Below, piece after piece: positions 1,481-64,000 of a stretch of 64,000 bases of DNA. The position numbers and the translations under genes were made by a program. The DNA comes from Amphirosellinia nigrospora. Taxonomy: Eukaryota; Ascomycota; Sordariomycetes; Xylariales; Xylariaceae. The first letter of the stretch is position 1. Each line of letters opens with the position of its first letter. Where the stretch lies: the NCBI GenBank assembly GCA_004123355.1, contig SCHM01000003.1, positions 2,542,001-2,606,000 of the forward strand, in the 5' to 3' direction. The notes under the pieces were generated by a model that had not been told where the DNA came from, ran no database searches, and was given only the letters and a program-made list of their open reading frames with translations.

Positions 1481-1489
1481 ATTTATTTA

Positions 1490-5285: not shown

Positions 5286-5289
5286 ATAT

Positions 5290-8068: not shown

Positions 8069-8107
<39 letters not shown>

Positions 8108-31525: not shown

Positions 31526-32505
31526 ACAATGGCAGCCTACCTAAGAACATGTTCAATGTGGACGAAGGTAGAATGGTACGGAGAAACTGTTGAGAGATAG
31601 GAACATCATACGGGAGATGTCTTATGTCTTCCAATTTCCGCTCATCTTCGATAGAAGACGAAATTAGGGAGGTTTGTTAATTATAAATTATTTTTGATCT
31701 CGTTTACCGCCTACTGTCATACTGTCCTGCTGTTGAATTTACATAGAACATTTGACATTAATTGTGTTTAATAACTTATCCGACCGAAAGGTGCACCGGC
31801 TCCTGTGCCTTACCGGATCGCCCTTAAATTAATATCCCGTCGATACTTATTACTAAGTTGAACTAAGTAACTGTGACTGCTGGTCAGTGGTAACAAGGGC
31901 TTGGGATCAAGTGCCTAGGTCGTAGGATTCTACATAGCTTATACTTACTCGGCCTAGACTGTTTGGTTTTTGTTTTATGTCATTTTATTTTCTGTAGAAC
32001 TTTCAGCTAAAGGCCTGTTTTAAAACGGTCTCTTATTATACATGTATCGAGTCGATTGCCTAACTCGTTTCAGTTCCTCTTTCGACTATTCAACACTGTA
32101 CGCCAACTGCTGAGAATTCCATATCTATAATTGATGAATATTACATATTCATACCTAGGCGATAATCTTAAGGAACGGGCTATAGTCTCCTGATACAACC
32201 TTGATAATGTCTTGTGTGAGTATATTACATGGTATTATACATGCAACTTATGACAAGTCGTTATGGCGTCTTGCATCTCTGGCTGAGGACTCCGTTGTGG
32301 GCGCGATGACTCGCATGCCATACGTCGCTGGCGTACGAAGGCGTAATATGGTTACACTTGGTTGGAATTGAGGGCGATCTTGTGCTGCTAGGCCGTGAGT
32401 GGTGGAGGAAGAGACTGAGCATTTACAAGAATGTCTCTCTGGTAGCAAGCGAGCCGTGGTGTTTGATGCCGGGCGTGAGGCGTATAGCCTGCGACCGACG
32501 GACTA
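31526..32505. other. Intergenic, no gene seen
   Basis: About 1 kb separating the accessory zone from the core genes. I see no protein-like frame, repeat or RNA gene here. Confidence 0.55.
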
Positions 32506-32823
32506 TCAGGCCTGATTTCTACCGTATTCTTTAGGGAGATTCATGCCGACCCTCCGTGCGCTCAGTCGTATCCGCTCCTCCTCCTCCATATTCATGCCAG
32601 GATTGTAGCGTTCTAATAAGGTGGTGTACTGGCGTTGCGCCTTTAGATAGTGTATCAACTGCTCGGCCAGATGAAGCGAGCTTTTTCTTGAAGCATTGTT
32701 GGAGAAGTTCTGTCGTAGTTGCTCATGGAGAGGCGACCTAGAGTTCGTCGACGTAAGAGGTCGGGGCGGCAGCTCTCTAAGTAAGGACCGGTACAAGGAG
32801 CGTAATCGTGCTGGCTGCGACAT
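32506..32823 (-). CDS. FMC1: Mitochondrial ATP synthase assembly factor FMC1 (LYR protein)
   Basis: A 105-residue single-exon frame starting at ATG 32,823. Near its start it has the LYR-type tripeptide in RSLYRSLLRELP; further on come SPLHEQLRQNF, LAEQLIHYLKAQRQYTTLLERYNPG and the closing RVGMNLPKEY. These are hallmarks of fungal Fmc1, the small matrix protein that works with Atp12 in folding and assembling the F1 sector of ATP synthase. Length is typical for the family. It is divergent from the mitochondrial GTPase gene that starts 357 bp away, so the two probably share a promoter region. No frame damage is visible, unlike most neighbours. Confidence 0.9.
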   Translation of the reverse strand: MSQPARLRSLYRSLLRELPPRPLTSTNSRSPLHEQLRQNFSNNASRKSSLHLAEQLIHYLKAQRQYTTLLERYNPGMNMEEEERIRLSARRVGMNLPKEYGRNQA

Positions 32824-33111
32824 GGTGATTCAGTTCACGTATCGAAGATTAACTTGCGTAGAGGTTGAGGTGTCGAGACTTTGGCGGCTTGCGATGCTTG
32901 GTGACAATGCGATGCGCTAATGATAGCTGCTAGGTGGGGTGGGCTAATGCAACAAGATAAGATAGGATAGATACCATGCCATCAGCTAGATCAGGTGGAC
33001 TACTAAACAGGTACTAAACATACCTATCTACAGGTTACACCCAAACAGACTCGGAGTTGCAAACCGAATAGAGCAACTCAATATTTCGTAAAGGGCCATA
33101 ACGGTTCGTGG

Positions 33112-33134
33112 CCCAAAACCCAAAACCCAAAACC
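33112..33134 (+). repeat. CCCAAAA heptamer repeat
   Basis: Three head-to-tail CCCAAAA units in the short intergenic region, about 45 bp upstream of the GTPase start codon. Too short to call a regulatory element; recorded as a simple repeat. Confidence 0.8.
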
Positions 33135-33180
33135 AAATTCCGAGGGTCCAAAATGCACACGCTATAGCACTTCTTGCACA

Positions 33181-34924
33181 ATGATGCCCGCGATATCGCA
33201 CCCGCTCAAGGCGCTTCTGGCAATGCCCGCATCCCTCCGGCCCATATTGCTGAGTGGATTCGCATCAGCATCATCATTATCATCCAGGTCCCGATCGCGC
33301 CAGCGCCGATTCTTCTCCGCCTCTGCCTTAAAACTCGCATCATCCAAGTACCCCAACGTCGCCGCCCTCCTTATACCCGAGTATCGAACGTCCGCCATCG
33401 CCGAGATCACCCCCGGCGACTTGTTCAAGACATCGTCACTGACTTCTGCGCCTGGCCAACCCCTGGAGGACGAGTTGACCAAGCTATACACAAAGAACCC
33501 CGCCGCTTTCGTCTACGCCGAGTCCGACTTCTACAAGCTGAAGAAGAACACGCGCGTGCCCGAGGTGTGTGTCCTAGGCCGCTCCAATGTAGGGAAGTCC
33601 TCCTTCGTAAATGCCCTCGCCAATCGTCCGAGCAGCCAACTGGCATACGTGAGTAAAAAGGCTGGTAAGACGAGGTCGATTAACACGTATGGCTTCGGTC
33701 TGGCCCCGACCATAAAGGAGCTCCAGGACCAGGGCCCCGCCCTCAAGGATGAGGATATCCCGACCCATACATTCCACCTAGTTGACATGCCGGGGTACGG
33801 GCACGCGTCGCTCAAAGAATGGGGAAAGAACATCTCCTTATACCTAAAAAAGAGGAGTTTTGTAAAGGGCGCCATCGTCCTGATCGACGCCGAAGTGGGC
33901 CCGAAGGACTCGGACTTCCACCTGCTTCAGGTTCTCAGTGAAGCTCAGTTGAGGACAGCCATTGTCATGACGAAAGCGGACAAGGTCAGGAAAGGATCGG
34001 AGGGGTTGCGTGAGACATGCACAAAAGTTTGGGATGGCATCCGGGCCATTGAGGCTCGGTCTGCAGACGGTAACTGGGTATGGACAAAGACGTCTATGTT
34101 ACGGCTGTAGGGGCGAAGGACTCCCGTAGTGGCCAGGTCGACACTGACTACCGCGAGGTTGGCCGTGGCTCGATTAGCGGGCCTCGTGAAAGCACGAGCG
34201 ACTTGATGTGGAGAGAAAATAAGCGGTGGTCTGGCAAGATGGTATCATTTGACGACCTGCAGTATGCCCCTAGCGAAAGCAGCGCCTCTGAAACAAATGA
34301 AGATGTCATCAAACCAAATATTCCGGTGCGAGTATGCCCTCTCTATCAAGCAACATACCCAGCGTATCCAAGGTCAACTCCGCATTCGCGGATCTTGAAC
34401 AAGCTGCGAAAACACAGCGCGGCAATCAGATCATCACACGCCCAAAGCCCCAGCTCTCGTCCCGGCGCAGCCGTATGCATGCTCGTGCATTTCACAGCAC
34501 ACCAACCCGAAGCCATGAGCAATCGTCCAAGAAGCTAACACGAGACGAGCTGCGGCCTGTCATCGATGACTTTGTAAAGACGTTGAGAACTGACACCCCG
34601 CGCGATGCGGTGCGCCGTCTTCAGCAGGAGTTTGAGGAACGGCCACCGGAGCTCTTCAAGCAATCTCGGAAAAATTGGGAGGAGCGCCAGACGCGCCGAC
34701 TACAGCGGCAGTTCCCTGAGCTGATAGACCGGACCCGCACCGTATTCGCCCAACGTTTGCAGATCGAAGAATGGAGGCACCAGGGTACGGGCGATCAAGA
34801 GACCGAGTGGCCCGTAATAAAGAACGCGAGTGGCCAGAAAGATGCCAACCAGGCCATGGACGCGAGCGAGTTCGAGACAGCCTTTGTCGAGTCTGATGGG
34901 CTTGTGGGTAAGAAGGCGAAGTGA
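33181..34924 (+). CDS. MRX8: EngB/YihA-type mitochondrial GTPase with long C-terminal extension
   Basis: The N-terminus is Ser/Arg-rich, as in a mitochondrial presequence (RSRQRRFFSAS). Then comes a complete EngB G domain: G1 GRSNVGKSS at residues 133-141, a switch-I region GKTRSIN near 162-168, G3 DMPGYG at 202-207 and G4 TKAD at 264-267. Bacterial EngB and yeast Mrx8 act in large-subunit ribosome biogenesis, here presumably mitochondrial. The frame stops at 34,110. A one-base offset near 34,081 restores the expected VYVTAVGA segment, and a second of the same sign near 34,322 joins a 196-residue C-terminal frame ending at 34,924. That frame contains RMHARAFHSTPTR and a charged helical region. 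Two explanations remain: one long protein with two sequence errors, or a GTPase followed by a separate gene starting at ATG 34,334. Confidence 0.8.
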
Positions 34925-35294
34925 AAAAGCCCAGCGAATAAAATCTAATGATCTTTCAAACATCGAGGTCTGAGGCTATGGCTCAACTTGCACGGCGCGA
35001 GGTATATGGTGGCTATTCTACGCGGATTGGCAGGTTACGATAGATGAAGAAGACGAAATTACGCGATATTGTAATATACTATATAACATTGTACATATTA
35101 AGAAGCGTAGAGCATGTGTCCCAATATTAGCTGTATCATTATACACAAAAACAAAGTACCTAAATTCCTCACAGGTAGCCATGCATAGAACCTTATATAC
35201 AAGCATGGCGTTAAAACGAGGAACCACCAGCATTACCCAGGTAAAGTACCCCCTGTCTAGAAGTTTCTAAATCTACGTAGTGGTGGCGCTCAAG
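34925..35294. other. Convergent intergenic region
   Basis: Lies between the ends of the GTPase gene (plus) and SWF1 (minus). It is AT-rich with no gene-like frame, as expected for two facing 3' untranslated regions. Confidence 0.6.
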
Positions 35295-37660: not shown

Positions 37661-40399
37661 ATGTCTGCGCCGGGGATCACTTACTCCGGCGTCCTCGCCA
37701 GAGAGCATGTTAACGAGAGCGTGAATGTGGATGTGGGTGTTTTTCGAGGACTCAAATTCTGGGTATCGGCGCGGGTTCCTCTCCGCCCATTCCATATTGA
37801 CACAATACAAGTATGGGCGATGTCTGTTGTTTCCTAGCGCGATGTTGAGAACTAATGTAACCTAGGGAATGGCGGTACAGTAGTCCCGAGAGAGGGGGAC
37901 GCCGATATGCTGATATGTGATCCGGCGAAGGATCCCTTGTCCAGTTCATACTCATATGAACTCATCGCGGATGCCGTCAAGGAGGGCTCCCTTAGCATGA
38001 AGGGAGACTATGTATGCAGCCCATCGGCCTCAAGACGGCCCAAAGCCACCAGGAACATGTTTACAGAGCAGGATGACAAGGTGTTGATGAGATTCGTGAT
38101 CGAGATGGAGCGCCTGGGTGAGAATACCAGCGGCAATAACATCTTCAAGAAGCTTGCAAAAGAGGTACGTTGTTCGATGTCGCGCCATTCGGCTTAATTC
38201 TGACCTAGATGACGAAGCACCCAAACCATACCTGGCAGTCATGGCGAGATCGATGGGTAAAAAGATTGAAAAACCTTCCACGACCATCAGTCTTAGACGG
38301 AGAGAGGACTCCACAGCAAAAGGGCACATCGGTTGCTCCCCGCCAAGGAGGTTCCGCCGGAAAGAGCCCCCCTACCGGGACGAGGGCACGATTCACCGCC
38401 GAGGAAGACAATATTCTTCTAGAGACAATACGCCATGCGATTGAGAACCGTGAGCCGTGGAAAGGCTATGAACCATATAAGCAATTAGCCAGTGAAGTTG
38501 GTATAAAGATCCTCCTCATTAGATACCTCTCTCTAATAGTGCACAGTTCCCGCAACGGACCTACACCTCGTGGAGGGAACGAGCCTTGAACCACGTGGCG
38601 AAAAAGAATAAGGATCAGATCGCCCGATGGGAAATTGAAGGTAGCTTTCGTCTGAGCGACAATGAAGATGAGGCTAGTGCAGAATCATCAGTAGCGAATC
38701 AAAAAAGTAAACATGCGACAACAGCGACCGCGAACGGGTCCCCTGAGAAAGATGCCACTCTGAGGGGCACTGATGAGGATCACAGCATAAACACTGCATT
38801 GCCACCTATGCCCAGGGAGGAGTCTCCAAAAGAGTTGTCAGATTCCAAATTGCGAACCACAGGCACACCAACTTACTCATCATCTTCTCCTATTCTTAGT
38901 GCTTTTCAGGTGCCAATCACGACAAAGGAGCAATTCTATCTCGATTACAACACTTTCTTAGAAAGCAGTGATGTTGCTGATAGGCGGATTATTCCTAGTG
39001 TCGCAGGCAAAGCTATCTCTCTCTGGGACCTTTGGCAGTCGGTCAGATCAAAGAAGGTGGAGGCTGGTGAGCTTGATTGGCAACAAATCGCCGAAGACTT
39101 AGGCTTTGATTGGATTTCAATCGAGTCGGTTCCCAATGAGCTGCAACAGTGCTACGAAATGCACCTAGCGCCTTTTGCAGACGCCATGATGAGTTTTAAT
39201 GACTCCAGTGACGAAGAAGATTCGATTGAAGACAACGCTGAGGCAGAAACTGAAGTGGTCCTACCATCATCACCTCCAATCCTCCCCTCATTGAAGCGAC
39301 CACCCTCTGCCATAAACCCAGTATACAAACATCTTTTCCCAGAGCCATCACCAAAAAGGCGGCGCTTAAACCGTAGCGATGAGATTCCATCCACCCCTGA
39401 GCACACGACCAAAACATGGAATCTACGATCCTCTGATGGCCCTGAAAAGACACCAACAACCTCACCTCTTAATAATTACAAGATTGGCAGATTCGTTCCT
39501 CAAACTCGAACACGACTAAGCGCCACGGATGAGGAGGACGATGAAATGCGAGATAGATTAACTGATCCATCGGTTCAACCACTAGGGCGAAAACGGCGGT
39601 TTGAGCCGGAGATACTGGAACTTCATTTCGACCTTAACACGCAAAGCTATACTCATGATGAGACTCTAGAACATTCCAACAGTGACTCTCAGAAATTAAA
39701 TACGCCATCACAGCAATTACTACAGGAAGATGCCACATCTTCAGAAAAGCAACGTAATGCTACCTCGATTTTGTCTATGTCTCACCAGAAAGCGGTGCAG
39801 ACTACCCCAACGCCGCGTCGCAGAATTCGAGTTCCCTTTCAGTTGGACGATTCTGATGATGACAATCTACAGCAAATAAGCAAAAGTACTAGAAGTGCTC
39901 GTGTATCCCTTTCTACCCCACGGCAAAATCAGAAACGACGAACCCTACCTGCATCATGGGTAACCGACTCTCCGGTCACAGCCGGCCCGGTAACTCGACA
40001 AGATGGGCACCCATCGTCTGCCACAGTTCCTGAGACTGAGCCTCGTCGAAAACCTACTCCGCTGAAAGAAACGCCTGACGATATAATTGATTACTTTGTC
40101 TCGTTAGGATACTCAAGAGATATTGTTCTTCGTTCCCTGAAGGCCACAAGCTGGATAATCGGCAATGCAGGTCAAGTCATGGAAATGATGAAGCAAGGAG
40201 AGCCACTCCACCGAGGACTACGGGGGTTTGGACACAACGCGATGACGCGTCGCTCGCGCTAGTGTACTCCAACAACCCCCCATCCGACGCGAAGGGGGAG
40301 AAGAAGCGAGCGAAAGAGATGGATCGCTTGCAAGCGAAACATGGACCAGAGCAAATTGCTCTACGCAAACGATACCTACTGGATGAGGTGCCGGAGTAA
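37661..40399 (+). CDS. RAP1: Telomere-binding protein RAP1 (BRCT-Myb-Myb-RCT)
   Basis: Four exons: 37,661-37,810, 37,866-38,164, 38,209-38,496 and 38,547-40,399. Exons 1-2 make a BRCT domain (FRGLKFWVSARVPL, then NGGTVVPREGD and MLICDPAKD). A Rap1-type Myb follows at about residues 107-173 (FTEQDDKVLMRF ... HTWQSWRDRWVKRL), then a second Myb near 209-265 (RFTAEEDNILLETIRHA ... RTYTSWRERALNHV). After a long acidic disordered linker comes the Rap1 C-terminal domain (DDIIDYFVSLGYSRDIVLRSLKA). RAP1 sits in the telomeric shelterin-like complex and in subtelomeric silencing. Two one-base deletions are apparent: at the exon 1/intron 1 border (CAAGTATGG, where CAAG/GTATGG would keep phase) and in the G5 run 40,222-40,226. 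Adding one base there moves the end from 40,262 to the TAA at 40,397-40,399 and yields a conserved-looking tail (VYSNNPPSDAKGEKKRAKEM ... RYLLDEVPE). Confidence 0.92.
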
Positions 40400-40897: not shown

Positions 40898-41766
40898 TTA
40901 GCCGAGCTTCGACTGGATGAAAGCCAGAGCCTGGCTGCCGTACTCGGTGACGTAGCCCTGGTGCGTGTTGGCGTCGTTGCCGTTGCAGCAGTACGGGTCC
41001 GCCGCGTCGCAGTACGACTTGATGATAGTCGGGTCGGCGGGCGAGCATTGGAATCCGCTGGGGCGGGCGGCAAACTGACGTCGGGAGGGAATGTCAGCAT
41101 ATTACCATATTCTTCTTCTTCTTCGTGTCTATCTGTTCTTTGCTACGAAGGAGGAAATTAGGAGGAAGATATTACTTACTCCTCCTGCTGTGCAGGTTCC
41201 TACGTTGTAGGGTAGCCCAGCGACGTTGTGCGGGTCGCCCATGAAGATGGCGACCTTAACAGCGGCGAGTGCGTTGCCGGAGAGTGTTTGTCCTGCACCA
41301 CCGCAGAGTGCGTTATCCATGATCTGACTCCCTGGATTCAGAATCGATTAGTGATTGTCATCTATCAAAGCTGATATATCAATCCAGGGGTTATCAAGAC
41401 CGCGTCCGTCTTTCCCACACGTACTTGAGAATAGCCAATGAGCACAATCTTGGTATCCGGGCATCTGCTGTTCAGACTATTGACGGCCGATACGACAGCG
41501 GCCGTGCCCTGGGTGGCGGAGCTGTCGTAGCTGACGCCGCCGCATTGCGACTGCCCGCCACACGCCGGGTACGTAATGGCCTCGGCTTGGCTGTCGGGGT
41601 ACGCGCCCGTCACCATGTTCACGAGCCCGCCCGCCGTGCCGTATCCCGCGGGCGCCGTCGTCTCGCGCGCTCCGAAGACGTACACGCCCGGACAGGCCTG
41701 GCGCTCTTCCACGAGCTTCGCGCTCGCGACGGCGGCTAGGATGGGGAGGACGTTCGTGGACTTCAT
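40898..41766 (-). CDS. Secreted CE5 acetylxylan esterase / cutinase-like enzyme
   Basis: Three exons: 41,766-41,425, 41,331-41,180 and 41,074-40,898. A signal peptide (MKSTNVLPILAAVASA) precedes the mature start CPGVYVFGARET. Family features follow: YPACGGQSQCGGVSY, the nucleophile in GYSQ (Ser-113), IMDNALCGG, MGDPHNVAGLPYNVGTC, and the catalytic Asp and His in DPYCCNG and THQGY. CE5 acetylxylan esterases remove acetyl groups from xylan outside the cell; cutinases of the same fold cut cutin. The many Cys and the THQGY form fit acetylxylan esterase better. At intron 1 the text reads CAA/GTACGT ... CCAG/GGAGTCAG; one G is missing for phase, again a one-base deletion. Intron 2 (GTAAGT ... CAG) is in phase. 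The start at 41,766 was chosen over the upstream in-frame ATG 41,805 because the signal peptide begins there. Confidence 0.92.
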
Positions 41767-41875
41767 CTTGAGTTCGTATGGATGACTTTTCGACGAAGGT
41801 GACAATCTTGGCTCTCAGAGGCAGATCGATGTGATGAGCTCGGATGGGAAGTTAAGGCACACGACGATCGCGAGG

Positions 41876-41883
41876 TTTATATA
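41876..41883 (-). promoter_or_regulatory. TATA box of the CE5 gene
   Basis: Minus-strand TATATAAA about 110 bp upstream of the start codon, a usual spacing once a 5' untranslated leader is allowed for. A TATA promoter fits an inducible cell-wall-degrading enzyme. Confidence 0.55.
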
Positions 41884-43361
41884 CTGCTTACCCTACGCAT
41901 CTCTTCACAGGAACAACTACCCGGGCCTCGCAGATCGATCGTCTGCCACATCCTGGAGAGTCCGCCGATCACCCGTTTCCCCAGATCCCAGCTCGCAATC
42001 AGGGCCAAGCGTTTCCGGGTCGGCGCATCGTCTTTCCCAGCGACGACATCACCTATCCTGATGGAAAGCGCATTATTGGCAGACCGCCCACATCCGAAAC
42101 TGCTGTGCTGATCCTGGACATTTCGGGAACGCGAGCTTGGACTATGGTCCTTGCAGACCTGCCATGCATAAATAACATTTGTTCATGACGAAGGCAATCC
42201 CGTGAAGGAGAAGCAGGGTCCAGGCAGGGACCTGACGCGTCCGTGGAGACTGAATTGGCTATATTTCAGACTCGCTTCTTCGCGGGTAAACTGGCAACCC
42301 CCGGCCCCACGTGAACTGCCGGTTAAATAGTCCTCGCCAGGTTCACACAGCAAGCAAGACGCACGCAGCCCTGACGTTCTACACGATCATGACTTCAAAG
42401 GTTCGGGTAATGGCATCACTCGTATCTAATTTAGGGATCTTGTCGGCGCCTCGTCTCCAGACGATGGTGTTGATCTACATTCCTAGATACTCATCAGGTC
42501 CGGAGTGAGGCGTTGCGTACAAATGCTAGAGTTGCATTCCCTTTGGCCTTCGAAGATCTCCATTTCGGGCAATTGGACGGGTATGTATGGAGGCATGTAT
42601 TGAGTTGCTGGTAAGGTTTCCAACATTCCCGGTTGGGATGGCAACTTCAATGTTCCGAGAGAGCAGACGAGGCGTACGTATACAAGAACAACATGAAGGT
42701 GAGCCCTATAATGGGGTTCATATACCTAGGAAGGGTAGGCACCTACCTAGTTTCGTCGCAATCTTGAAACCAGCAGTATATGCATCTTTATGTGTATAAA
42801 GTACATTTACAAAAAGAAGCTTTGAATGAGGAGTGCTACGCCCAGCCACAACCTTGTGTGTTGTAGTGTGTGTATCTTGGCTCGAGATGGACCAGAAAAG
42901 AGGATGTATTAGAGGATGGAGAGTCCAGGCATTATTCAAGCCACCACAGCCACTTTTCCACGCCACACTCGAACGTTTTGGGAGATGTGTTCCCCTCCTT
43001 TCTTCCACCAAGGTACTCCGTACTTATCTAGTAAATAGATATCTCGCTTCTATCGTCCTGCAGTCCCTATTCTGTGTCAAAACCCCATCGCCAAGACGCC
43101 GAGGCTTCGAATCATGATGCTAAGCTTTCCCGATCCTCCGGGGCGCAGTGACCCGCCGTCAGCAGTAACCAATCAGGCAATACGATACTTGACCCTCTGT
43201 CCTCTGTTGAGGTGCATGTCGAGCTGAGCCAGCACAACGCCTTTGTTTATATCTTTGTTTATACCTTCCATCTCGGCTACGTAACGTACGAAAGAGAAAT
43301 ATCCTCACAAGTTGTACACCCATCACGCCACCGAAGCCTCCATCTCATTGCAATCACCGAT
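41884..43361. other. Divergent intergenic region, no gene seen
   Basis: About 1.5 kb between the CE5 gene (minus) and the glycine-zipper gene (plus). Open frames here are short and have no protein character. It should contain both promoters. Confidence 0.55.
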
Positions 43362-43381
43362 ATGTCCAACCAAGGGTATTA

Positions 43382-43423
<42 letters not shown>

Positions 43424-44188
43424 AGGCTATCCTCCCCAAGGCCATCAATACCCCCCTCAAGGCCAATACCCGCCTCAGGGCCAATACTCTCCTCAGGGCC
43501 AATACCCGCCTCAGGGCCAATACCCGCCTCAGGGCCAGTACCCGCCTCAAGGACAGTACCCTCCCCAGAGTCATGGTCAATACCCACCGCCCCAACAGCA
43601 ATACGGCGGTCCCTCTCCATCACATTCCCCGTACCCTCCACAGCAGTCGTACGGAGCGCCTCCACCCCAACAGCATTCGCCCTACCGCCTCACCAGCAAT
43701 CGTATGGCGGTCCGCCACAGTACGGCTCCCCATCGCCGTACCAAGGTCAGCCGCCGCATGATCCACATGCACCCCAGGGACAAGGACAGGGACAGGACAC
43801 GCCTACGCCTATCCTCCTCAAGGTCAGGCTGATCAATACACGCACGGCGGCAGTCCTTATCCTCCCCAGCAGCACGGTGCGGCCAGCAGGGAGGGTGACA
43901 GGGGTCTCGGCTCTATGCTTGCCGGGCATTAGGCGGCAAGGCTGGTCATGGTAGTAGTCCGTTGGGGCTATTGGCGCGGCAGCTGCGGCCTCATTTTCGG
44001 TGGTAAGGGGGAGCCACGGGAGTTCACACGGTGGGGCATCCGGATTCATCCCCGGTGGTGTTGCCGGCTATGTGGGCGGACATGGGGGCAAAAAACATAA
44101 GAAAGAGAAGAAGCACAAAGGCCACAAGCGAAGCAGTAGCTCTGATAGCAACAGCAGTCGGAGCAGCAAGAGCAGCAAGAGCAGCTGA
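43362..44188 (+). CDS. YPPQGQ-repeat, glycine-zipper protein with Lys/Ser-rich tail
   Basis: It starts at ATG 43,362 (MSNQGYYGG), then a run of about 12 Gly, then about seven YPPQGQ-type repeats and further Pro/Gln/Tyr-rich sequence. A segment GDRGLGSMLAG opens a Gly/Ala-rich helical region of the glycine-zipper type, and the end is KKHKKEKKHKGHKR plus a Ser-rich tail. Similar fungal proteins of unknown function combine a PQ-rich disordered N-terminus, a Gly-zipper that may insert in membranes, and a Lys-His/Ser tail. Reading straight through needs four one-base additions, near 43,684, 43,798, 43,924 and 43,975; all have the same sign, and the last frame, which closes at 44,188, agrees with four such losses. 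So it is probably one intact gene of about 275 codons seen through sequence errors. Confidence 0.7.
43437..43565 (+). repeat. 18-bp coding repeat (YPPQGQ)
   Basis: About seven head-to-tail units of the form CCGCCTCAGGGCCAATAC with synonymous variation. All stay in frame, unlike the 14/15-bp array at 28.7 kb, so this array looks maintained by selection. Confidence 0.85.
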
Positions 44189-44407
44189 ATGACATTGAGT
44201 GCTTAGTAGAACTATCACTTATGTAACAAATGGAGACAGCTTATCACAAGCTATGAATATTTCCATTTTCAAAATACATCAGATGTGCTCACAACAGTCT
44301 AACAAATGTATATGCTTCTGGCCATCCGCGAATATTAGTTTCCACGCCGGTGTCTGAAGCTGAGTGCTACCTCAAGGCCCCCATCATACCTTGATCCATT
44401 TTTTTTT

Positions 44408-46165: not shown

Positions 46166-46716
46166 TTAAGCAATCTCTTTCAGTAAAACATCACCACTAC
46201 GCTCACACCATGGATCGATCCGGTCCTTGACGAATAGCTCGAGTTTCGGCGCCAGCTTCTCGATATCAGTCACCGAGTCCAGCAGTCCCATCTTCACGAC
46301 CAGCTTTCCCCCCAATGAATCGGCTCTGACAACGACGATCGTAGGGCACATGGCGCAGAAATTGTACACGACATCCAGCCCCGAAATCCCCTTGCGCGTC
46401 CAACTTCGCAAGTCACCCGTTTGTTGGAACTATAGTTTTTCCCCTCAGTGATCGATCACGATAATATCCGAACATGTCGGGAGGGAGTGCGCGAAGAGAA
46501 CTTACGTGCTGAGGATCAACAATCAGGTTCTGCTCCCGTTCGCACCGGCGCATTTACGACATGGGACGCAGTGGCATAAAACTAGTAGGCGATTCGCAAG
46601 ATCGTCGGTCAGGTCTTCGTTTCCATCCTCTCTTATGAGCGAGCGCACTTACTGTTCCCAGCGGCTCCCGTCAGCTGGAAATTCACTGCACCGCACATAC
46701 AGCTTCCTTTTAGCAT
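46166..46716 (-). CDS. GFA-domain protein (glutathione-dependent formaldehyde-activating enzyme family)
   Basis: Three exons: 46,716-46,653, 46,581-46,506 and 46,429-46,166. They carry the three cysteine signatures of the family in order: GSCMCGAV (exon 1), CHCVPCRKCAG (exon 2) and FCAMC (exon 3). The end of the fold follows, with VVVRADSLGG, PKLELFVKDRIDPW. These small zinc proteins (CENP-V/GFA fold) bind zinc by Cys pairs. The name comes from one bacterial enzyme, and most fungal members have no proven substrate. Introns use GTAAGT donors and CTAG/CTATAG acceptors. Exon 2 needs one extra base near 46,525 to avoid TGA and to meet exon 3 in phase. Confidence 0.85.
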
Positions 46717-49700: not shown

Positions 49701-51666
49701 TGTACGGACTGTGTCTGCCAATGCGGGCAGTTTTTGGCATGAAATTGGCCAAGCAACAATGTGGATATTACCTGATGGGTTGTACCCCACAATTTTGTAC
49801 CAAATCTACCAAACTTGAACTTTTGTGTGCAGCTACCTATTTGCTGCGCCCGCATCAATTGCTTGGTCAATTGACTCGGCGAAGAGTAGCATTGTTACCA
49901 ACTCCTTGTCCGTCCTATGTTGAGATTTAGATTTTGCTCATGTGTTTAGTGACGCGCCTAGCCCCCTGGCTTGCACGTGCAATGTATTGAGAAACACTTG
50001 TGACGTAATGCAAAGACTCAGCTTTCGAGACCCACACCTACTAGATCTAAGTACCTATGTACCTACAGAGCTATAATTATACATATGTATATGTATAGTA
50101 CTAGCTGAAAGTCTCGGTATGCTGTATTCCTCCAAGTGTGTGCCACTATGATCGTCATGAACTTGTTAGCCCAAGTTAGACCCAAGCATGTGGGCTAGCA
50201 TGATCCAAGTTCCAAGTACTGCTTAGAGCAAACACTAGGAGGTTACTTTGAGGCGTGTAGGGCGTAGGTCTGGGCAGCGGCCTGACCGCCAATGAGAAAT
50301 GGCGGATGAAGTAATGGAAATGCGGTGGGTTTCATCTTGGTAAGATCTAACTTTAAGTCACAGCGCATTTACATAGTACCAGGCATTTACAAGTACGGCT
50401 TCTACTAGTGTGCCGGTACATTGACGCTAAAATACCTCGCGGAGCAGGGGCAGAACAGCAAAATCTGAGCAAAATCTAAGCAGAACAGGGACAGGACAGG
50501 GGCACCGCAGGAAGACCCACTTTCTATTTGCATCATCGTGACTTGTTGCTTAATTGAGTAATCTAAACTTGCAGAATCTTTTCTGCGCAGCGAAAAACCC
50601 AAACCCCCTTTTACAAGTACGGCGCGTGGCTGACACTACACACCTACAAGACAGGTACGAGAGGTACTTTGATGAGACGATGGACGATGACCGCATACTG
50701 CCAGCCCGCAGCATTGACCGGCAGTGGCTGTGCGTGTTGCGGGAGGAAGGCATGTGAAGATCAAACACGCAAAGTGGTAAAGATGCGACTTCTGAGGTGA
50801 GCGGCGGATGTGAAGCTGGATGCTGGATGAGAAGGATTCATCCGCCAACGTCACTATTCTCTCTACTGTGAGTATGAGTAGTGTACAAGTGCGCTGTGTA
50901 ATGAATGTATCATGCTGTTAAGTAGCTGTGACGCCCAAGACGGAGCCAAGAGGCGCGGCAGGTTAACCTGATCGGGTCTGCGCCCTATGTTTCCTGCCAT
51001 GTTGTTGATTCGAGGCCGTTCCTCGTACAGGCCCTGTAACGTATCCCGCACATATACGGCAATTGCCAGGCAGCCATATAACGTTTGGCTAGCTGCATTA
51101 GTTCAGGCGCAGGCAGCCGTTTAGCAAACAACACCTGAACAACACCCAGTCAAAGCACGCTACTTGCAATATACCCACCGGCGAACAGAGCTTAGGTCTG
51201 CTTGGGTTGACATTGCACTGGAAATAGGGCTAGCGAGCTAGCTCAGCGGAGGCTGTCAAGTACCTACCTACTACCTACCTACCTAGTAAGTACGGCGTCC
51301 GCCTTCACTTGCCCCCAATTCAAAACGATCGGCAGTGCGACATGCTGGTCATTGGTACCACTAGCTTCGCCTGGGGTCCCTAGCCACATCAGCCAAGCTA
51401 GAGCGCGTTATTACCGTAGTGTACCTGCTACGGCTGTCATCATATAACAACTCCTATTTTCTTTACATGACCTCAACCAACATCCACATCACAAATACAA
51501 CACCTAGAAACACACAGGAATACAGGAACACAGGAACACAGGAACGCGGTCACACGCCCGAACACATCGCAAGAGGGGGAAAACGCCCCAGAATCATGGA
51601 AGCTGCCTCATGTGTGGCCATACCAGCTTTTCATGACGTCTCCCGCAAGGAATAACGATAACCAGC
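46717..51666. other. Five-kilobase gene desert
   Basis: I see no convincing gene. Open frames are short, overlap on both strands and lack domains. Small structures only: a palindrome acggtcg-ctcta-acgaccgt near 48,525, TACC-type microsatellite sequence near 51,265-51,290, and an imperfect acaggaacac repeat near 51,517-51,545. Composition is normal, so this is not a RIP block. Confidence 0.5.
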
Positions 51667-53525
51667 ATGTCTCTTTCTTCACAACCGCTGCAATGCCACC
51701 ATGTCGTTCGTGTTGTTGCCGTTGCGACTAGCATTGTGACGGCCCGGCACCTCTTCACGAACGGCTTTCACTACCCATTGCTCATGTTACTGGGCCATGT
51801 CTCGATCGCCCTCATAATAGAAGGTCTAAACGCCCGCCGTGATGTAACCACCGATGCAACTACCGTCCAGAGACGCCCGCAAAGCTGGACTTCGCGGTTC
51901 TGGCAAGCCTTGTTCGCTGCTGCAATTGCAGTCGGCCTTATCTTTACCTATCACAGCTTTCTTCATAATAGGAACACCACGTTAGGTGTTATGTTGCTGG
52001 GGCTCGATTGGGCAACCGTCGTGGGCCGAACATGGAGATGGCTGCAAGGCAAGCAGCGTTCAGCTGACGCTCTTTTATCAACCACCACATTTCTACTATG
52101 CGTTGTGCTCTTGATATGGAAAGAGAACTGGCTGGTTGGCAAAGGCATCGAGGTACGATTCGTCGCTACGCACTCGGGTGGAGGCGCATTGACTGACCAA
52201 ATTCTTTAGTTTCTTCTTGTAGCCGTCGTGTGTATAGCGATTGCGAGGTACCTTTGGGTTCATGATTTAGTGGAAACCCCTTTCAATATCGGTACTTTCG
52301 ACGTGGACGCCTACAGTACCGGACTTGTTATTTGCCTACCCCTGGCAGCCTTCCTACTAGTCGTGACGGGCTGGTACAACCGACGAGACTTCCACATGGA
52401 CGGCCGAGTGTTGGGTGTGCTAATTAGCACGATAGCTGGTCCCTTGTCACTAATGAGTGAAGCGAGGATGAAGAAGCTCACTTTCTGGCTGCAAGAGAAA
52501 GTCACATTTCACACTAGGATGAGCTTGAACTTTGGTAGCCCCATATTCCCTTTGCTAATCCTAGCAATTGTTGAACTCGATAATTGGCTGATACAGCACC
52601 GACCATCAACGACCTCGGGCGCCCAGTGGTTGAGTTTCGCAATCGCATATCTAACCACGATCGACATGGCTTGGATGACCTCGGCGGATGCATGGGCGAG
52701 TGAGGAAGGCTCTTATGTGCCTATACCTAGTTTAAAAGCCCAAGATGAGCCGGGAGACCAGATTAAGAATCCAACTCCCGATGATACGGAAGCTTTGTGG
52801 CCGCCCAGCTCCACATACGCCGGTGGATTCTCATCGCTACGGCATATTTCCCTAGCATGGCATGCTATCCTAGGTAGCCTCGCATTATTGCTAGTATTTT
52901 ATTGCGCGATCGCTGCGCCATATACAGAGCCCGGAAGGAGGTCCTGGGATTTGGATATCGTTATTGCTTGGTACGACGAGCCTGTCGAACAGGTAGTCAG
53001 TACTGTGCAACTAGCTCTCGAACTTCCTAACATCGCTGGACGCAAAGTTAGGACAATTGTGTATAACAAAGGGTCCTTAAACGAAACAGAGCTTGAGTTG
53101 AATTTCCCGATTCAGAGCGGCCTCGTCATTAGAAGACTGGAAAATGTCGGAAGAGAAGGAGATACCTATCTATCACACGTACTAGAGAGCGAACAAGATT
53201 GGGCGAGCCACACTATGTTCATACAAGCGGAACCACATGAGCCGGGTTATATCCAGGCTCGCCTGGAGGACTACTTCGTCGACAAGACAGGTTTCTTATC
53301 ACTATCGTATGTGCGAAACTTCTGTCCTAACTGCAATACGTGCAACGACCATTCCGGCTGGACTGAGGATGGTGCAGTCCTGCGAGACATTTTTGAGCGC
53401 GCGAACCCCAACAAACCTGTCAAAACCTCAGCTTGACCTACAGAGGCCAGTTCGTAGTTTCATCACGCAGGATGAAGAGGCCAACCAAGACTACTTCGCG
53501 ATATGCGGAGTCGAGTAATAAATGA
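51667..53525 (+). CDS. Polytopic membrane protein with C-terminal DUF3431 domain
   Basis: Exon 1 is 51,667-52,152; intron 52,153-52,209 (GTACGA ... TTTAG, phase 0); exon 2 runs from 52,210. The first about 400 residues form some eight to ten hydrophobic spans (for example FWQALFAAAIAVGLIFTY, LLSTTTFLLCVVLLIW, LVICLPLAAFLLVVTGWY). The C-terminal domain begins DLDIVIAWYDEPVEQV and contains VRTIVYNKGS, LENVGREGDTYLSHV and MFIQAEPHEP, which mark it as DUF3431, a fungal domain that looks like a divergent glycosyltransferase. The frame stops at 53,436, but a one-base addition near 53,432 continues into LTYRGQFVVSSRRMKRP and ends at 53,525, as the family does. A role in surface-glycan synthesis is a guess. 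Confidence 0.82.
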
Positions 53526-54191: not shown

Positions 54192-55348
54192 TCAGATGCC
54201 ATCATTTACAGAGCTCGGCCCCTGCGGCGTTCCGAGCCTGCTCTCAAAGAAGAACCGCAACCTCTCCACACGGGCGCGGTCGGCTAGGAAGCGCTGAAAC
54301 TCGGTCGGATCCGTCGACGGGATATCGACAAGCTCCGGGAAACCGGCGGGAGCGGGAACATCTCTGCGCACGCTCCAGACGCCCGTGTTACGCTGGTACT
54401 CCTTGCTCAGGATGAAGTTGTGCAGCAGCTTCGCGCCCTCGGGGTGTGGTGCGTCCTTCAGAATCGCCCCCGCTGCGGCCATGTGTTGAAGTGGCCCTTG
54501 GTCGGGATCGAGATGTTGAGCGGCGCTGCGGGACTCAACCCCACGATCGATGTGAAGGTCGCTGCTGCGGTGCTGTTGGGCGAGAATAAGAGGGTCGCTG
54601 CCGTCTGCGTGCCCCGTACCCAGAGCGGGTTCTGTGCGAGGAGGGCGTCGAACCATTTTATTCCGAACTCTTGGAGGCTTTGGTACTGGTAAGTTGAGTT
54701 GCTTTTTTTGTTCTGGCCGGTGTCCCGGCGGCGAGACGGTACTTACATCAGGTCAAAGGCGTAGAGGCTCGCGTCGTCGTCGGTTGGGTATGTGAGAACC
54801 AACTTGCCCTTGAACTCGGGCTTTAGAAAGTCGGTAAACTCCATCGGCCCATCGGCGACGCGGTCCATGTTCCAAGTGAACGTCCAAGGGTAAACGGCAG
54901 TGGCGTGCCAGGCTCCGCGGATGTCCCTGAATGCCGGGTACAACTTGTAAAAGTCGAGAGGCTGGTAATGCAGAAGAGCCCCTTCCTGGTCCCAGCGAGG
55001 ATAGTCTTGTAATGTCTGCAGGATGATGCTGTCGACGTAGAGATCGTCGGCGGCGAGTTGACGGTCTATGTCGCCATCTTGGTACTTGGATAGGTCGACG
55101 GTAAGGTTGAGAGTCATTTTGGGGAAACGTGCTTCGAAGGCGGCCTTGAGGCCGTCCTGTTGCATCGCCTCATCGCCGCCGTGCCAGCAGGTCACGATGC
55201 CGCCTTCGGCTATCGCGGCCTCGTAGATCTCGTCAATGGTTCTTGTCTCGACTTCGGGTGCACCATTAAATCCCAAGATACTATCGTACGCTGCAACGCA
55301 GGTACTTAATAAGAGGGTGCCGGCAACGAAGGGTTGGATGCGAAACAT
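54192..55348 (-). CDS. Secreted bacterial-type solute-binding protein (SBP family, Fe3+-transport-like)
   Basis: Exon 1 is 55,348-54,747 and exon 2 is 54,685-54,192. A signal peptide (MFRIQPFVAGTLLLSTCVAAYD) is followed by a type 2 periplasmic-binding-protein fold: IYEAAIAEGGIVTCWHGGDE, LKAAFEARFPKMTLNLTVD, DSIILQTLQDYPRWDQEG, YPWTFTWNMDRV, FKGKLVLTYPTDDDASLYAF, then WVRGTQTAATLL and ILKDAPHPEGAKLLHNFILS. In bacteria such proteins feed ABC importers; fungi have no matching importer, so an extracellular binding role is likely. The closest bacterial group binds ferric iron or thiamine-like ligands. Two one-base deletions are apparent: at the exon 1 border (CTGAT/GTAAGT, one G short) and near 54,470 (CAGCGGGGGCG). 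Length after repair is about 365 residues, normal for the family. Confidence 0.85.
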
Positions 55349-57103
55349 GATACTAGAGAATGGGATTCTTAGATGCGGCTGGAGGGTTTCTTCTTGTCTG
55401 TCGGGAATCCTTGGGTTGTCAGTCCTTAAGTAGTCGAGCACACCTTGTGAGCATTCTCGTCCAGCATACTTAATCACCCTATCATAAATCACCCTATCAT
55501 ATCTACCCAATACTTTTGCAAAGAATCTCGTTTTTATTACTACACATATCTCGTATAACAGCTTCGTCTTCCAAAATTTATTCAAGGTTCTTACGCCAAC
55601 TCGAGATATAATTAGACTCCTTAATACATTATACGGAATAAAATTAGACTACGATTTCAACATCGAAGATGTTCAAGTCATAGAGGCAGTGTAGAAGGTG
55701 CAGCCAAAAGCTTTACAGCTTCGGTAAGTGGAGATCGAAATGTTGCATTAGCTTTCGGAGATGCAGTGTCAGCTTCGGGGCTAGACGTTGAAGGGTTGTT
55801 CTAATTCCGATGCACGACAGATACCTACCATGGCACTTGAAGGAAAGAAGGTGTGACAAGTGAACAATTTAGGTAGTCTCTGGGATCTCTTTAAAGTGGC
55901 TGTAGATATCCAACGTTGAATATTAGGGATGTTCAGCTGATGATAAGGGGACTTCAGAACCCGAAGCATGAATATATAAACCCCCCACCCCGCCCTTAAC
56001 ACTATTAAAATACCCTGTAGCGCCGAGCAAGTCGTCACTAAAATAGAAAGCTTTGCCGGCGAAGTTCTATTTTAATACGTTGTAAATCAAAGTGCTAAAG
56101 CACTTCGATTTAAGTAACGGGAATACTCGCTCCCAGACCTCCTACTTCTTAGACCTTTTACTCCCCAGACCTCTACCCCCTACGTAAATTTATATATCTA
56201 GAGGGGCTCCGCCCGGGAGGGTTGGACTTCTGGGAACTCGGCCGCCGTTCTTCACGGTCCGGCCTTCGCCCTAGCCGGCCCTTTTGCAACGCGTATTGTT
56301 AACCGTGTTGGTGGTGTAGTGCTGGTTTCGTATTCGTATTTGAATATAGTGGTTGTTAGCGGCCATTTTCACTATTGTAGTGCGTAAGCTATACAGTCCA
56401 TATGAGTGTAAATACGTTGTGGTTGATTACTTAATTAAGGTTTGACCAATCAAAGGCTTGCAGAGTCCCTTCTAGCTAATTAGAGGCCTGCAGAATCTAT
56501 TTAGAGTTTTAGGGTTACGGCTTAACTTCTCAAGCTTCGCTTTCCTTTTTATACTTAATTTACTTCGTAAATACCTATTCGAGGGAAGCAAAGCTTTCCA
56601 ATAATTGTGTCTTCTTCTATTCAATTTTCAGGAATTATACTTTATTAAACGCTTATCGAATACTAAGTCCCACAGGCTCCCATGTCAAGCCTTTAACATT
56701 TGGATGCATCGTTAGTAAACGCACTTAGGCTAGGCTTTGCCTTTTGCGGCGTGCTTTTTCATTTTCCCAACGATAGCGAAGATATCTAGCAAAGATATCC
56801 ATCCTGAAAACTAATATATATGTAAATCGCTAAAAATGGCATTGCAGCCCGCCTGGATAACTTCACACTTTCGGTAATATACGGTATATTCTATAGGTCT
56901 ACATGTATTCCATGACTCTTTTCCCCTTCCTGGCCAAGTGCGATTCTATATATTTATGCCTAAAATAGCTTTGCTCCTTGTGGCTAACATCTCCTCCTCT
57001 TTCCTCCTGCCTTTTCAGGAGCCGAGATCGTACACGAATAAATTAACAGTAGGAGCCACTGCTCGACATCTCACATTTATATAACTATTATGTTATGCGG
57101 AAT
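55349..57103. other. Gene-free stretch with decayed repeats
   Basis: About 1.75 kb without a supported gene. It holds the inverted copy of the double-hairpin repeat and a stretch (56,450-56,850) of moderately AT-rich sequence with gggaagcaaagctttcc-type palindromes like those in the 16-20 kb zone, suggesting transposon remnants. Confidence 0.55.
55998..56115 (-). repeat. Dispersed double-hairpin repeat, copy 2 (inverted)
   Basis: The reverse complement reads ACTTAAATCGAAGTGCTTTA, then a TTTGATTTAC...GTATT arm, the CTTCGCCGGCAAAGCTTTC palindrome and GGCGCTACAGGGTATTTT, matching 19,980-20,095 in the same order with a few differences. Confidence 0.7.
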
Positions 57104-59850: not shown

Positions 59851-60278
59851 TCTGATTTTGGGCGCTATTGTTGTCTGTTGAGAATGAGGTGTGAGGAAAC
59901 TACTGACATCCCACGACGTGGCCCGCCGAGTTATTACTTCCTCCCGTTTTCCCTTGAAGCAGCCAGGGAGAAGCATGTAAATTTTTCATATAGACTGCAT
60001 CTCTTTGTTCCTCACCGTTTCCAGAGGACTACAATCCGTCTCTCGAGCGCTGTTTATGTCAGCCTCCAGCAGTCCATTGTTACCCGCTTAGTTCGCTCTC
60101 TGTTTCGTCTTTACATGTATCTCATTTAATTTTGTCTCCTTTGTCGAGATCATTCTCGGCCGTGGCTTTGTTCCTTACTGCCCCTCCATATAGGAGTATT
60201 GCAGACCATGCACCTCGACAACTATGAAATACATTATTCTGGCGACTAGATGCTATTACCATTAGTATAGAAGAGAGT

Positions 60279-61027
60279 ATGAGTTTACCTCAATTGAACC
60301 CCAAGCCGCAGACATGGCCCAGACCGGGTGGCCCTCTATCACCGGAATATCTCGTGAACCTCAACGAGCGCCTCATTCTCCAAAAGTCCCGCCTACGACA
60401 CTTCATAGAAACCGCGAATCTGCAGGTGGGATTTGATCTCGATTTTTTGCTCACGCAAATAAGTTACCGCGCCTTTACAATCATACGAGTCATTGCGATG
60501 CAGGCGCCTCCTACTGTCCCGCCCGACCAAGAACTCATCGAGGCCACGAATGCCCTAGCCTCCGAGTTACAGACCCTAACCGGCGATGCAAAGAAGCCTG
60601 AACTTATACCCGACATCGTAGATTTACCAGACCAAGGATGGGATGATTGCCTTAAAGGCTTCTGCACAGTTTTTGAAGCCAGCGTGGATACTTACCTTAT
60701 CGGAGACCTTCCTGGCTACCAAGCCAGATTCTCTGGTAATTCGCCGCCCGACAAGATCTATCGGATTTACAGCCGCTTGGTTGACGGCCTTGGGGAGTAC
60801 TCCTGCCTTTGGGTTACCAGAACAGGCTTAAGAAGAAATTAGAAAGTTCGCGGTCGGGCGTTCTCCACACTGACCTGTGGATGAAGGAGACGAAAAACGC
60901 CGGCGCTGCACCGAAGCGCAAGCTGGACACACTTGGTTTGGACGAGCCGGCGAAGAAGCGTTTGCTGAATGAAATGAAGGATTGGCCTAGGTTGGATAGG
61001 CTGCTGTCCACCCCTGTCGAAGAATGA
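60279..61027 (+). CDS. Small hypothetical protein
   Basis: Single-exon frame from ATG 60,279 (MSLPQLNPKPQTWPRPGG), open to the TTTGGG run near 60,808. A one-base addition there continues it as LGYQNRLKKKLESSRSG ... LDTLGLDEPAKKRLLNEMK and closes at 61,027, about 249 residues. The first half has a helical region (YLVNLNERLILQKSRLRHFI) and FTIIRVIAMQAPP; the end is basic. No domain recognised. The gene next to it on the minus strand is also unrecognised. Confidence 0.6.
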
Positions 61028-62713
61028 TGAAAACGCCTTAGGGATGGAGGAGTATTCCGCATGATGGATAGCCGCATGTAGTTGATAAGCATTTAAGCTC
61101 GTGGTTCATCATAGCACCAATACATAAACCAGCCCTATCGACTTGCGTCCCAGTGATGATGTTGTGACCTGTTCATACTTGCCCTAGATATTGATTTGCC
61201 CCCCCCGCATACCCTCGCCATGCCTTCCATAGCATCGCGTCTATCATGGGCTGTCATAGGCCATCATAGGCCGTCACTCAATATCCTACTTGTACTAGAC
61301 ATAATTGCTTGTGTGGTTACTAAGCAAGGCTTAAATCGGCAAAGAAATAACGAGAGCTTTGGGTTACTGTAGTCCGGAATTCCATGCATATACTTGCAGG
61401 GTATTGTTATAGGCAGGTGCCTAGGTGGTATGAGGTAATCAGGAGACTTGAATGTGGTTGTGCTGACTCGGCATGGAACCTCCGAGTTTCCTTCCGGGGA
61501 CCGGAATATGTACCCACAGTGATCACCAACTTTTGTCTGTATTGGACACCCTCCCCATTCTTCCTTGAAAAAAAAAAAAAAAAAACCAAAAAAAAACCTA
61601 CAACCATGACAATCGCCTATGAAAATCGCCTTATAACTCATTTTCTTACTACCTCAGGACATCCCGTTGATAGGCCATCATACAGTATGCACCACGTACG
61701 AGGTCGTTAGCTGTGATTGGTGGTGCATTCAACGAGACGACCAAGATTCCGGGGTCGTAAGCCGATAACCTAAGACTTCTTCGAGCACCGATTCTCAAGC
61801 TTCAGCCTCTATCTTAGTCCGAAGATATATATGCTAATGGACGTCCGTGGCGCCGCCCGTTTCATCTGGATTGGCTCGAGATCCGAAATCGCAATCGACT
61901 GCGCATCTTCTGCTCGAATGACAAGCTTGCAGCAGCCAGATCAATGGCTCGAACGGTTCTGGCAACTAATGGTTTTTTATAATGGCCATGGGTGTACTGC
62001 ACTTGAATGACCTGTTACGATATGCTGTCTTGTGATTGCCGACGCCGGTAACCAAACCGGCGGGGTTCACGATAACCAGAGATGCACCACCCACCGCCGA
62101 CAATTCATGCTCCGGCGCCCGTGGCAACGGTTACTAATGGCTAGGTACGTTTTGATGCGTGCTTGATAGCTTAATAAAGTTTAATCACATTTTGTTCGAT
62201 GGAATAATGTGGGTGGCGAGTTGCGCCTTTTGTGCGTGATGGAGACTTCCAATGCGTTCTTTCCGCCGTGGCACGCGTCCGAAGCTGTTCTGTCGATGGT
62301 CTCACCGATCGATTTCAGCAGTAAACTCTCAACTATAAGAATCAACCACGAGCAGCGAAGAAAGGCTGCCACCTGCACCTCCCTTACATTCCACAGCCCA
62401 GTATCCTAGTCTTTACGTCACACATCACATCCCCGACGTCTGCCACGAACCTTACTCCCTTCAGCCTATATCCTCCATCTCGTGTGCGTCTGCAATACCA
62501 CCCGGCTTTTAATATCCTTACCTGCGCGGTTGAATGTGCATCGCTACAGGTGGACAATACCGTCGTTCCCACCACTCTGGTATTCCGAGACCTGCTGGGC
62601 CCCCAATCGTCTCAGCTCGTTGCTATTCGGCCATTGAGCGTTTGCGACCCACTAGTCAATATACTCAATATACTCAATATACATTTCGCGGGTGACAGCA
62701 CGGCTCGTGCGCC
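61028..62713. other. Intergenic, with poly-A tract
   Basis: No gene seen in about 1.7 kb. Contains A18 (61,568-61,585), CC, then A9 (61,588-61,596); a threefold caatatact repeat at about 62,657-62,683 just before the ATPase gene; and short aggccgtca/aggccatca repeats near 61,250. Confidence 0.5.
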
Positions 62714-64000
62714 ATGGCTCCGTCAATGCCGTCACACCCGTTTGTCACCATCTTTCTGGTGGACAATATACATTGTCCGACCTGTGTATCCAGTATTAAA
62801 GATGCCCTGCAAAATCTGGACGGCGTCAGATGGGTGTCGCCCAATATCATCACATCTTGCGTCGCTGTCGACCACGACCCTGCCATCTCCATCACGCAGA
62901 TGGCCTCCAAGTTGGAAGAAGCCGGGTTCAAGGTCTCCAGCGTGTCTTCGGAGAATGGCGTTGACCGCCTGGATGACCCATTCGTGGAGATGCTCAGTTA
63001 TCGAATGACTCTGATGGTGCGGGGACGACTTTTCTAAGTTAAGGAGGCTTAGGCATCCGCGAGAAGCTATAACTGAAGAAGTGAGAGTGAAGGCACACCT
63101 CAACCACTGCGAACAGTGTCGTGTAGAAGAAGCAAATGAAACGCCTGCTGGAGCGAGTGCCACGTTAAATATACCTCGTCAATTATCAGACCGCGTTGCT
63201 CGCAAACACGATTCGGCGCAGACTGCTGCCACGTCATCTACTGCTGTTGATGATGGTACCAGCGCCTCTACATCATGGAGGGCCTCATTAGCGATCAGTG
63301 GGATGACTTGTGCGGCTTGTTCCAACGGAATCACACGTGAGTTAGAAAAAAAGGATTGGGTCATCAAGGCCATTGTCAATCTAGTAACCAATAGCGCCGT
63401 CGTGGAATATCTCGGCGATAAGAAAGATGTTACTAAAGTGGTCGAGAGCATTGAAGATCTTGGATATGATGCCCATATCGACCAAGTCAATGCTATCAGC
63501 AGCGAGAGCGAGAAGAAAACTACGCATCAGCGCACAGTGCAGATACGTATCGACGGTTTCTATTGCCCGCATTGTGGTGACCGTGTGGCATCTAGTGCTG
63601 CCGGCTTCCAGTATGAACTACGAATCAACCGCCGTCCTACGTTCCAATCTCCTATCCTAGAACTCACATATGTTCCTCAGGTGCCAAAATTCACAATTCG
63701 CCATATTCTAGCCGCGATTGAGGCAAGCGATCCAGCTTTCAAAGCATCCATCTACCACCCACCTACTCTCGAGGAACGGGCAAGACAAATACAGGCTCAA
63801 CACCAAAAGAAAATCTTTGTTCGAGCATTCCTGACGCTCACCATCGCAATTCCTACTTTTATAATTGGCATTGTCTACATGAGTCTACTTCCAGACAGCA
63901 ACCTGGGAAAAAATACCTGATGACGCCTTGGGCATCGGGCATTAACCGTGCCCAGATTGCGCTCTTCATCCTCGCAACACCAGTCTACTTCTGTGCCGCC
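62714..64000 (+). CDS. Copper-transporting P1B-type ATPase, N-terminal part
   Basis: From ATG 62,714 the reading gives a heavy-metal-associated domain (VDNIHCPTCVSSIKDAL, Cys-21/Cys-24), a linker with HCEQC, a second such domain (ISGMTCAACSNGITRELE ... VVESIEDLGYDA), a third more divergent one (IDGFYCPHCGDRV) and the first membrane span (VRAFLTLTIAIPTFIIGIVYM). Three Cys-x-x-Cys domains ahead of the transmembrane core mark a Cu(I) export ATPase; the core lies beyond the window. Two frame breaks: the G run at 63,021-63,024 (one base too many, or two too few) and the A6 run at 63,908-63,913 (one too few), after which YLMTPWASGINRAQIALFIL continues to the edge. A short intron near 63,010 cannot be excluded for the first break. 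Confidence 0.88.

What the first reader, a model, noticed from the sequence alone, without database searches (positions are those of the whole stretch)
32500..64000. Recurrent one-base deletions break nearly every conserved gene
Frame comparison shows the same sign of error, a missing base, in the GTPase gene (2), RAP1 (2), the CE5 esterase (1), the glycine-zipper protein (4), the GFA protein (1), the DUF3431 protein (1), the solute-binding protein (2), the 60.3-kb gene (1) and the copper ATPase (1). Only one break has the opposite sign (63,021). Most fall in or next to short base runs (G5 at 40,222, A6 at 63,908). Three fall exactly at an exon/intron border, where AG/GT would need a second G. 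RAP1 and a copper ATPase are unlikely to be dead, so uncorrected long-read sequence is the best explanation. Standard gene calls here would be truncated or split.
Basis: partly seen in the sequence, partly recalled or inferred. Interest (0 to 1): 0.8.

Follow-up and report, generated by a model that had tools for sequence, protein, structure and literature searches.

The report
Assembly-wide missing bases, not gene decay
Many genes in this stretch of fungal DNA look broken because the genome assembly appears to have dropped single bases, also in tRNA and 5S rRNA genes, so this is most likely a sequencing artefact and not biology.

Summary
The window lies in a 48.1 Mb, 11-contig assembly. Chaperonin, HSP70 and kinase genes on six contigs break the same way: of 63 collinear neighbouring hit pairs, 25 have fewer than 40 surplus bases; 17 of these are in the frame class 'one base short', 8 in 'one long or two short'. 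The strongest evidence is in untranslated RNA genes. Of 50 tRNA genes inspected, 7 lack one or two bases, six of them otherwise identical to sister copies; I saw no extra base. Thirteen main-type 5S copies show 11 missing, 0 extra and 3 substituted bases. This speaks against ribosomal frameshifting, RNA editing and real decay. Technology and organism were not identified. Low biological interest; a useful annotation warning.

The parts
33100..34921 (+). GTPase gene (MMR_HSR1) followed by open pieces in other frames; first frame change likely, second may be an intron or a new gene start
   Evidence: Pfam PF01926 in piece 33100-34107; pieces 34074-34535 and 34301-34921 without Pfam match; frame class and intron options
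37661..40396 (+). RAP1 gene: frame one base short across its first intron and again within the Rap1_C domain
   Evidence: Myb_Rap1, ARID and Rap1_C matches on separate pieces; frame test
40901..41799 (-). CE5 (cutinase-family) gene in three collinear pieces; the frame change at the first intron has an in-frame splice alternative
   Evidence: PF01083 positions 1-88, 89-125 (below its curated cut-off) and 124-173 on the three pieces, searched apart
43341..44185 (+). Glycine/proline-rich (glycine-zipper) gene whose open pieces run through several frames
   Evidence: Open frames only; last piece has no Pfam match above cut-off; not in the intron test
46169..46758 (-). GFA gene in separate pieces
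   Evidence: PF04828 positions 53-115 (above cut-off) and 1-19 (below cut-off, E 0.01) on two pieces
51637..53522 (+).
   Evidence: Open frames; only GC-donor intron options; no Pfam family
54195..55399 (-). Solute-binding protein gene: frame one base short across the apparent 61-base intron (alternatives exist) and again near the 3' end (no intron option)
   Evidence: PF13343 on piece 54746-55399
60228..61024 (+). Gene at 60.3 kb, frame change near 60.8 kb; intron options exist
   Evidence: Open frames; no Pfam family
62696..64000 (+). Copper-ATPase gene start: frame change near 63,021 (intron options exist) and near 63.9 kb (none)
   Evidence: One complete HMA domain on each of the pieces 62696-63034 and 63015-63917

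Best explanation
The recurrent breaks are consensus errors of the assembly, mostly the loss of a single base, spread over the genome. A consensus was written from noisy, probably long, reads and not fully corrected, and bases were dropped both in base runs and outside them. In protein genes each loss shifts the frame; in tRNA and 5S genes it shows as a copy shorter than its twins. Shown here: the breaks, their sizes, their presence on other contigs and in untranslated RNAs. Inferred: that reads and polishing are the cause, and that the reads were long.
For: Conserved genes elsewhere break the same way: 25 of 63 collinear hit pairs have under 40 surplus bases, 23 of them within 4 bases of zero, while the other 38 have 47 or more, as introns would. 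13 of the 25 are short by exactly one base. tRNA: 7 of 50 inspected lack one or two bases, six otherwise identical to sisters, no extra base seen. 5S: 11 missing, 0 extra, 3 substituted in 1456 bases of 13 copies. Control: HSP70 in 25 bacterial genomes gives one single-frame hit of at least 588 of 599 positions in 21 of 25, and the 13 same-contig neighbour pairs I checked in that table are all in one frame. Runs of 5 or more are over-represented at breaks: 4 of 14 against 0.54 expected, P 0.0014. The same problem is described for nanopore-only assemblies of a fungus (PMC7500977, passages read).
Against: No reads were seen. The deletion sign is only 17 of 25 in protein genes outside the window, about P 0.05 by my arithmetic. 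Rates differ: 16 short pairs in 25,914 aligned bases of TCP1 and HSP70, but 9 in 63,741 of kinases; tRNAs look worse, 8 missing bases in 50 genes. I have not explained this. 10 of 14 chaperone breaks are not near runs of 5 or more, unlike the homopolymer picture in PMC7500977, and run lengths show no sharp cut-off. Six of the 11 missing 5S bases are in one C run and could be natural length variation.
Confidence: 0.96

Rival explanations
1. Real gene decay: the bases are as written and the genes are dying in this strain, through relaxed selection near the AT-rich block or a mutator state.
For: The window adjoins a block of 5-8% GC; a mismatch-repair mutator would make one-base losses in runs (established knowledge), and runs of 5 or more are over-represented.
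Against: Breaks are on six contigs and in chaperonin and HSP70 genes, which are essential (established knowledge). tRNA copies lack a base but are otherwise identical to sisters; decay would bring substitutions too. Most chaperone breaks are not in long runs. RIP makes substitutions, not deletions (established knowledge).
Confidence: 0.02
2. Recoding: the ribosome slips, or the RNAs are edited by insertion, so the DNA is right and the genes work.
For: One sign of shift dominates (17 of 25).
Against: tRNA and 5S genes, which are not translated, also lack bases. Sister copies keep the base, so it is not a fixed feature of the gene as editing would need. The contexts at 14 chaperone breaks look diverse to me; no motif search was run.
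Confidence: 0.01
3. For some listed sites (CE5, the solute-binding intron, the second GTPase change, 63,021) there is no break: a different intron or gene start keeps the frame.
For: In-frame GT/GC-AG options at 8 of 11 junctions.
Against: 8 of 14 chaperone breaks also have such options by chance. For CE5 the option with donor GTGTGG would alter the motif GYSQG that I recall as conserved in the family.
Confidence: 0.5

Closest known systems
Residual indels in nanopore-only assemblies of the fungus Drechmeria coniospora (PMC7500977; passages read)
   Same: Highly contiguous fungal assemblies in which conserved genes are frame-broken by small indels; complete BUSCO genes rose from 62-66% in the curated Canu assemblies to 98.5-98.6% after short-read polishing.
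   Different: There most errors were in homopolymers, and polishing introduced more insertions than deletions. Here deletions predominate and 10 of 14 chaperone breaks are not near runs of 5 or more. The technology of the present assembly is unknown.
Gene-fragmenting errors in long-read assemblies (Kastor, PMC12007338; abstract start in a listing only)
   Same: The abstract start says higher error rates introduce frameshifts and premature stops that pseudogenize genes.
   Different: Made for small genomes; not read further and not run here.

Membership tests
Assembly consensus (indel) error | Hits genes regardless of function and across contigs | tested here: met
   Short-residual pairs on C1, C4, C5, C6, C7 and C8
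Assembly consensus (indel) error | Hits untranslated sequence as well | tested here: met
   tRNA and 5S copies
Assembly consensus (indel) error | Indels in excess over substitutions between near-identical copies | tested here: met
   5S main type 11 missing against 3 substituted; six tRNAs differ from sisters by missing bases alone
Assembly consensus (indel) error | Enriched in homopolymers (typical of nanopore) | tested here: inconclusive
   Runs of 5 or more over-represented but a minority, 4 of 14; no run-length cut-off
Assembly consensus (indel) error | Reads disagree with the consensus | not testable with these tools
   No reads are held
Gene decay | Limited to dispensable genes, with substitutions and indels mixed | tested here: not met
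   Chaperonin, HSP70, tRNA and 5S genes hit
Programmed ribosomal frameshifting | Affects only translated sequence | tested here: not met
   tRNA and 5S genes also affected
Insertional RNA editing | The base is missing from the gene as a rule | tested here: not met
   Sister tRNA copies keep the base

The most novel reading that the evidence does not exclude
The bases are right: this strain carries a genome-wide, recent one-base-deletion mutator state, so that tRNA, 5S and chaperone genes hold fresh losses beside intact copies, tolerated perhaps in a multinucleate mycelium where other nuclei keep working copies.
Probability: 0.01. Interest if true: 0.75.

Novelty: not a real feature. Interest (0 to 1): 0.07.

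Why it matters
Not a biological finding. It matters for anyone who uses this assembly: gene calls, protein sets, pseudogene counts and claims of gene loss would be unreliable until the consensus is checked. Comparing multicopy tRNA and 5S genes with each other is a quick test for such errors that needs neither reads nor relatives.

Tried and rejected
Tried without result: SSU rRNA search in the own genome (no usable answer). Naming the organism or finding its genome paper by size and contig number (searches found 0 papers; the 15 of 341 papers listed show no occurrence of the size). HSP70 relatives in genome contigs as a control (one locus; its genome then served as centre). Run-length truncation (not conclusive). 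Rfam on window 16000-64000 (0 matches).

Considered and rejected: introns as the general cause (the surplus lengths form two groups with nothing between 38 and 47); RIP (substitutions, not deletions); ribosomal slippage and RNA editing (tRNA and 5S evidence).

Recount and rows dropped: my first count (56 pairs, 23 short, 17 against 6) left out two TCP1 pairs and used kinase pairs picked by eye. One search recounts by rule (same strand, gap up to 500, collinear): 63 pairs, 25 short, 17 against 8; it replaces. Doubtful rows kept in the 25: HSP70 on C4 with residual 38; TCP1 on C4 with residual -31; TCP1 on C1 with an overlap of 96 profile positions; and three pairs with DNA gaps of 52, 70 and 151 bases (all in the minority class) where an intron plus unmatched residues is possible. 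20 of 33 5S copies were left out of the 13-copy count as divergent types, by eye; the 13 are compared with their own majority. 8 of 58 tRNA hits were not fetched, and 6 of the 50 inspected have no sister copy. The run test used 14 of the 16 short TCP1 and HSP70 pairs.

Full report
Setting. The window is bases 2,542,001-2,606,000 of contig C5 in an assembly of 48,114,038 bases in 11 contigs. Introns, RAP1 and the other genes point to a filamentous fungus (inference); the species was not found. Bases 1 to 16,000 have 5-8% GC, the rest 42-53%.

The observation. Open pieces of the claimed genes lie in changing frames. For RAP1, Rap1_C positions 2-45 lie in the piece 38523-40259 and 37-83 in 40091-40396, overlapping on the DNA, so no intron fits. 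PF01083 is divided over three collinear pieces of the CE5 gene (the middle one below its cut-off) and PF04828 over two pieces of the GFA gene (the short one below its cut-off). The two copper-ATPase pieces carry one complete HMA domain each. I tested 11 junctions for in-frame introns of 40-159 bases. Three have none (RAP1 3', solute-binding 3', copper ATPase near 63.9 kb). The DUF3431 gene has only GC donors. RAP1 intron 1 has options only with acceptors at 37890 or 37894, past a stretch NGGTV that I recall as BRCT-like; Pfam gave no hit to the first RAP1 piece. The other six have further options, among them the one of opposite sign near 63,021. As a yardstick, 8 of 14 breaks in chaperone genes also have such an option under a similar GT-only test, so an option alone does not decide. 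The DHHC gene is open across its domain.

Is it local? No. I searched the assembly for TCP1 chaperonins, HSP70 and protein kinases and asked how many bases lie between collinear neighbouring hits beyond what the profile accounts for. The 63 pairs fall into two groups: 38 with 47 or more surplus bases and 25 with 38 or fewer, 23 of these within 4 bases of zero. Of the 25, 17 are in the class 'one base short' (13 by exactly one base) and 8 in 'one long or two short' (six of the eight read as two short). By my arithmetic a split of 17 or more in 25 has a one-sided chance of about 0.05, so the sign alone is weak evidence here. TCP1 and HSP70 give 16 short pairs in 25,914 aligned bases, about 0.6 per kb; kinases give 9 in 63,741, about 0.14 per kb. 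Both are lower bounds, since small pieces are missed and only part of the kinase candidates were scored. As a control, the same HSP70 search in 25 bacterial genomes gave one single-frame hit of at least 588 of 599 positions in 21 of 25; in the other four the matches are shorter or lie on different contigs; the 13 neighbour pairs on one contig that I checked all keep one frame. Bacteria have no introns in these genes, so this controls for the profile method, not for fungal gene structure.

Is it translation? No. Dispersed tRNA and 5S rRNA genes were compared with each other. Of 58 tRNA hits I inspected 50, 30 cut out by the search and 20 fetched later; 44 have a sister copy. Seven lack bases: L070, L110, L113, L114 and L115 lack one and are otherwise identical to a sister; L116 lacks two and is otherwise identical; L111 lacks one and also differs at its ends. 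I saw no tRNA with an extra base. Of 33 5S copies, 13 belong to the main type; in 1456 bases they show 11 missing, 0 extra and 3 substituted bases, the three being the same change at one column. Six of the 11 are in one C run and may in part be natural length variation. These genes are not translated, so ribosomal slippage cannot be the general cause; sister copies keep the bases, so insertional editing is not one either. Decay would bring substitutions along and would not be expected in essential chaperone genes.

Where do the losses fall? At 14 of the 16 short TCP1 and HSP70 pairs, the longest nearby run is 5 or 6 in 4 cases against 0.54 expected from the same genes (P 0.0014); for runs of 4 or more it is 4 against 2.4 (P 0.19). 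Run-length counts in 219,044 bases show no sharp cut-off. The three intron-border cases need no special mechanism: CE5 and the solute-binding intron have other in-frame introns, and the missing base cannot be placed to the letter.

Explanation. The simplest cause is an incompletely corrected consensus from noisy reads; long reads fit the contiguity. The same problem is described for nanopore-only fungal assemblies: in PMC7500977 (passages read) complete BUSCO genes rose from 62-66% to 98.5-98.6% after short-read polishing. That study saw mainly homopolymer errors and more insertions than deletions after polishing, so the technology here stays open. Reads could not be inspected; that is the decisive test.

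Verdict. This is most likely an assembly artefact of low biological interest and a warning for annotation. The recount weakens the sign argument but not the RNA-gene evidence, so I leave the odds as they were.

Noticed in passing
window 1-16300: A block of 5-8% GC, full of short AT-rich repeats, passing over into ordinary sequence at about 16.3-17.2 kb. It looks like very heavy RIP, and the surviving C and G seem (by eye) to sit mostly in CG or GC pairs.
   Followed up: no
window 38523-40259: The RAP1 gene also carries an ARID domain (PF01388, E 2.3e-11) between its Myb and C-terminal domains.
   Followed up: no
window 58795-59379: A short in-frame repeat of serine-glycine type on the plus strand; the real gene is probably on the minus strand. 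No Pfam match above cut-off.
   Followed up: no
window 18110-20971: Overlapping open pieces, mostly on the minus strand, outside the finding's coordinates; not examined for breaks.
   Followed up: no
L085-L088, L092-L094, L096 and other 5S loci: The 5S rRNA genes fall into several distinct sequence types dispersed over the genome.
   Followed up: partly
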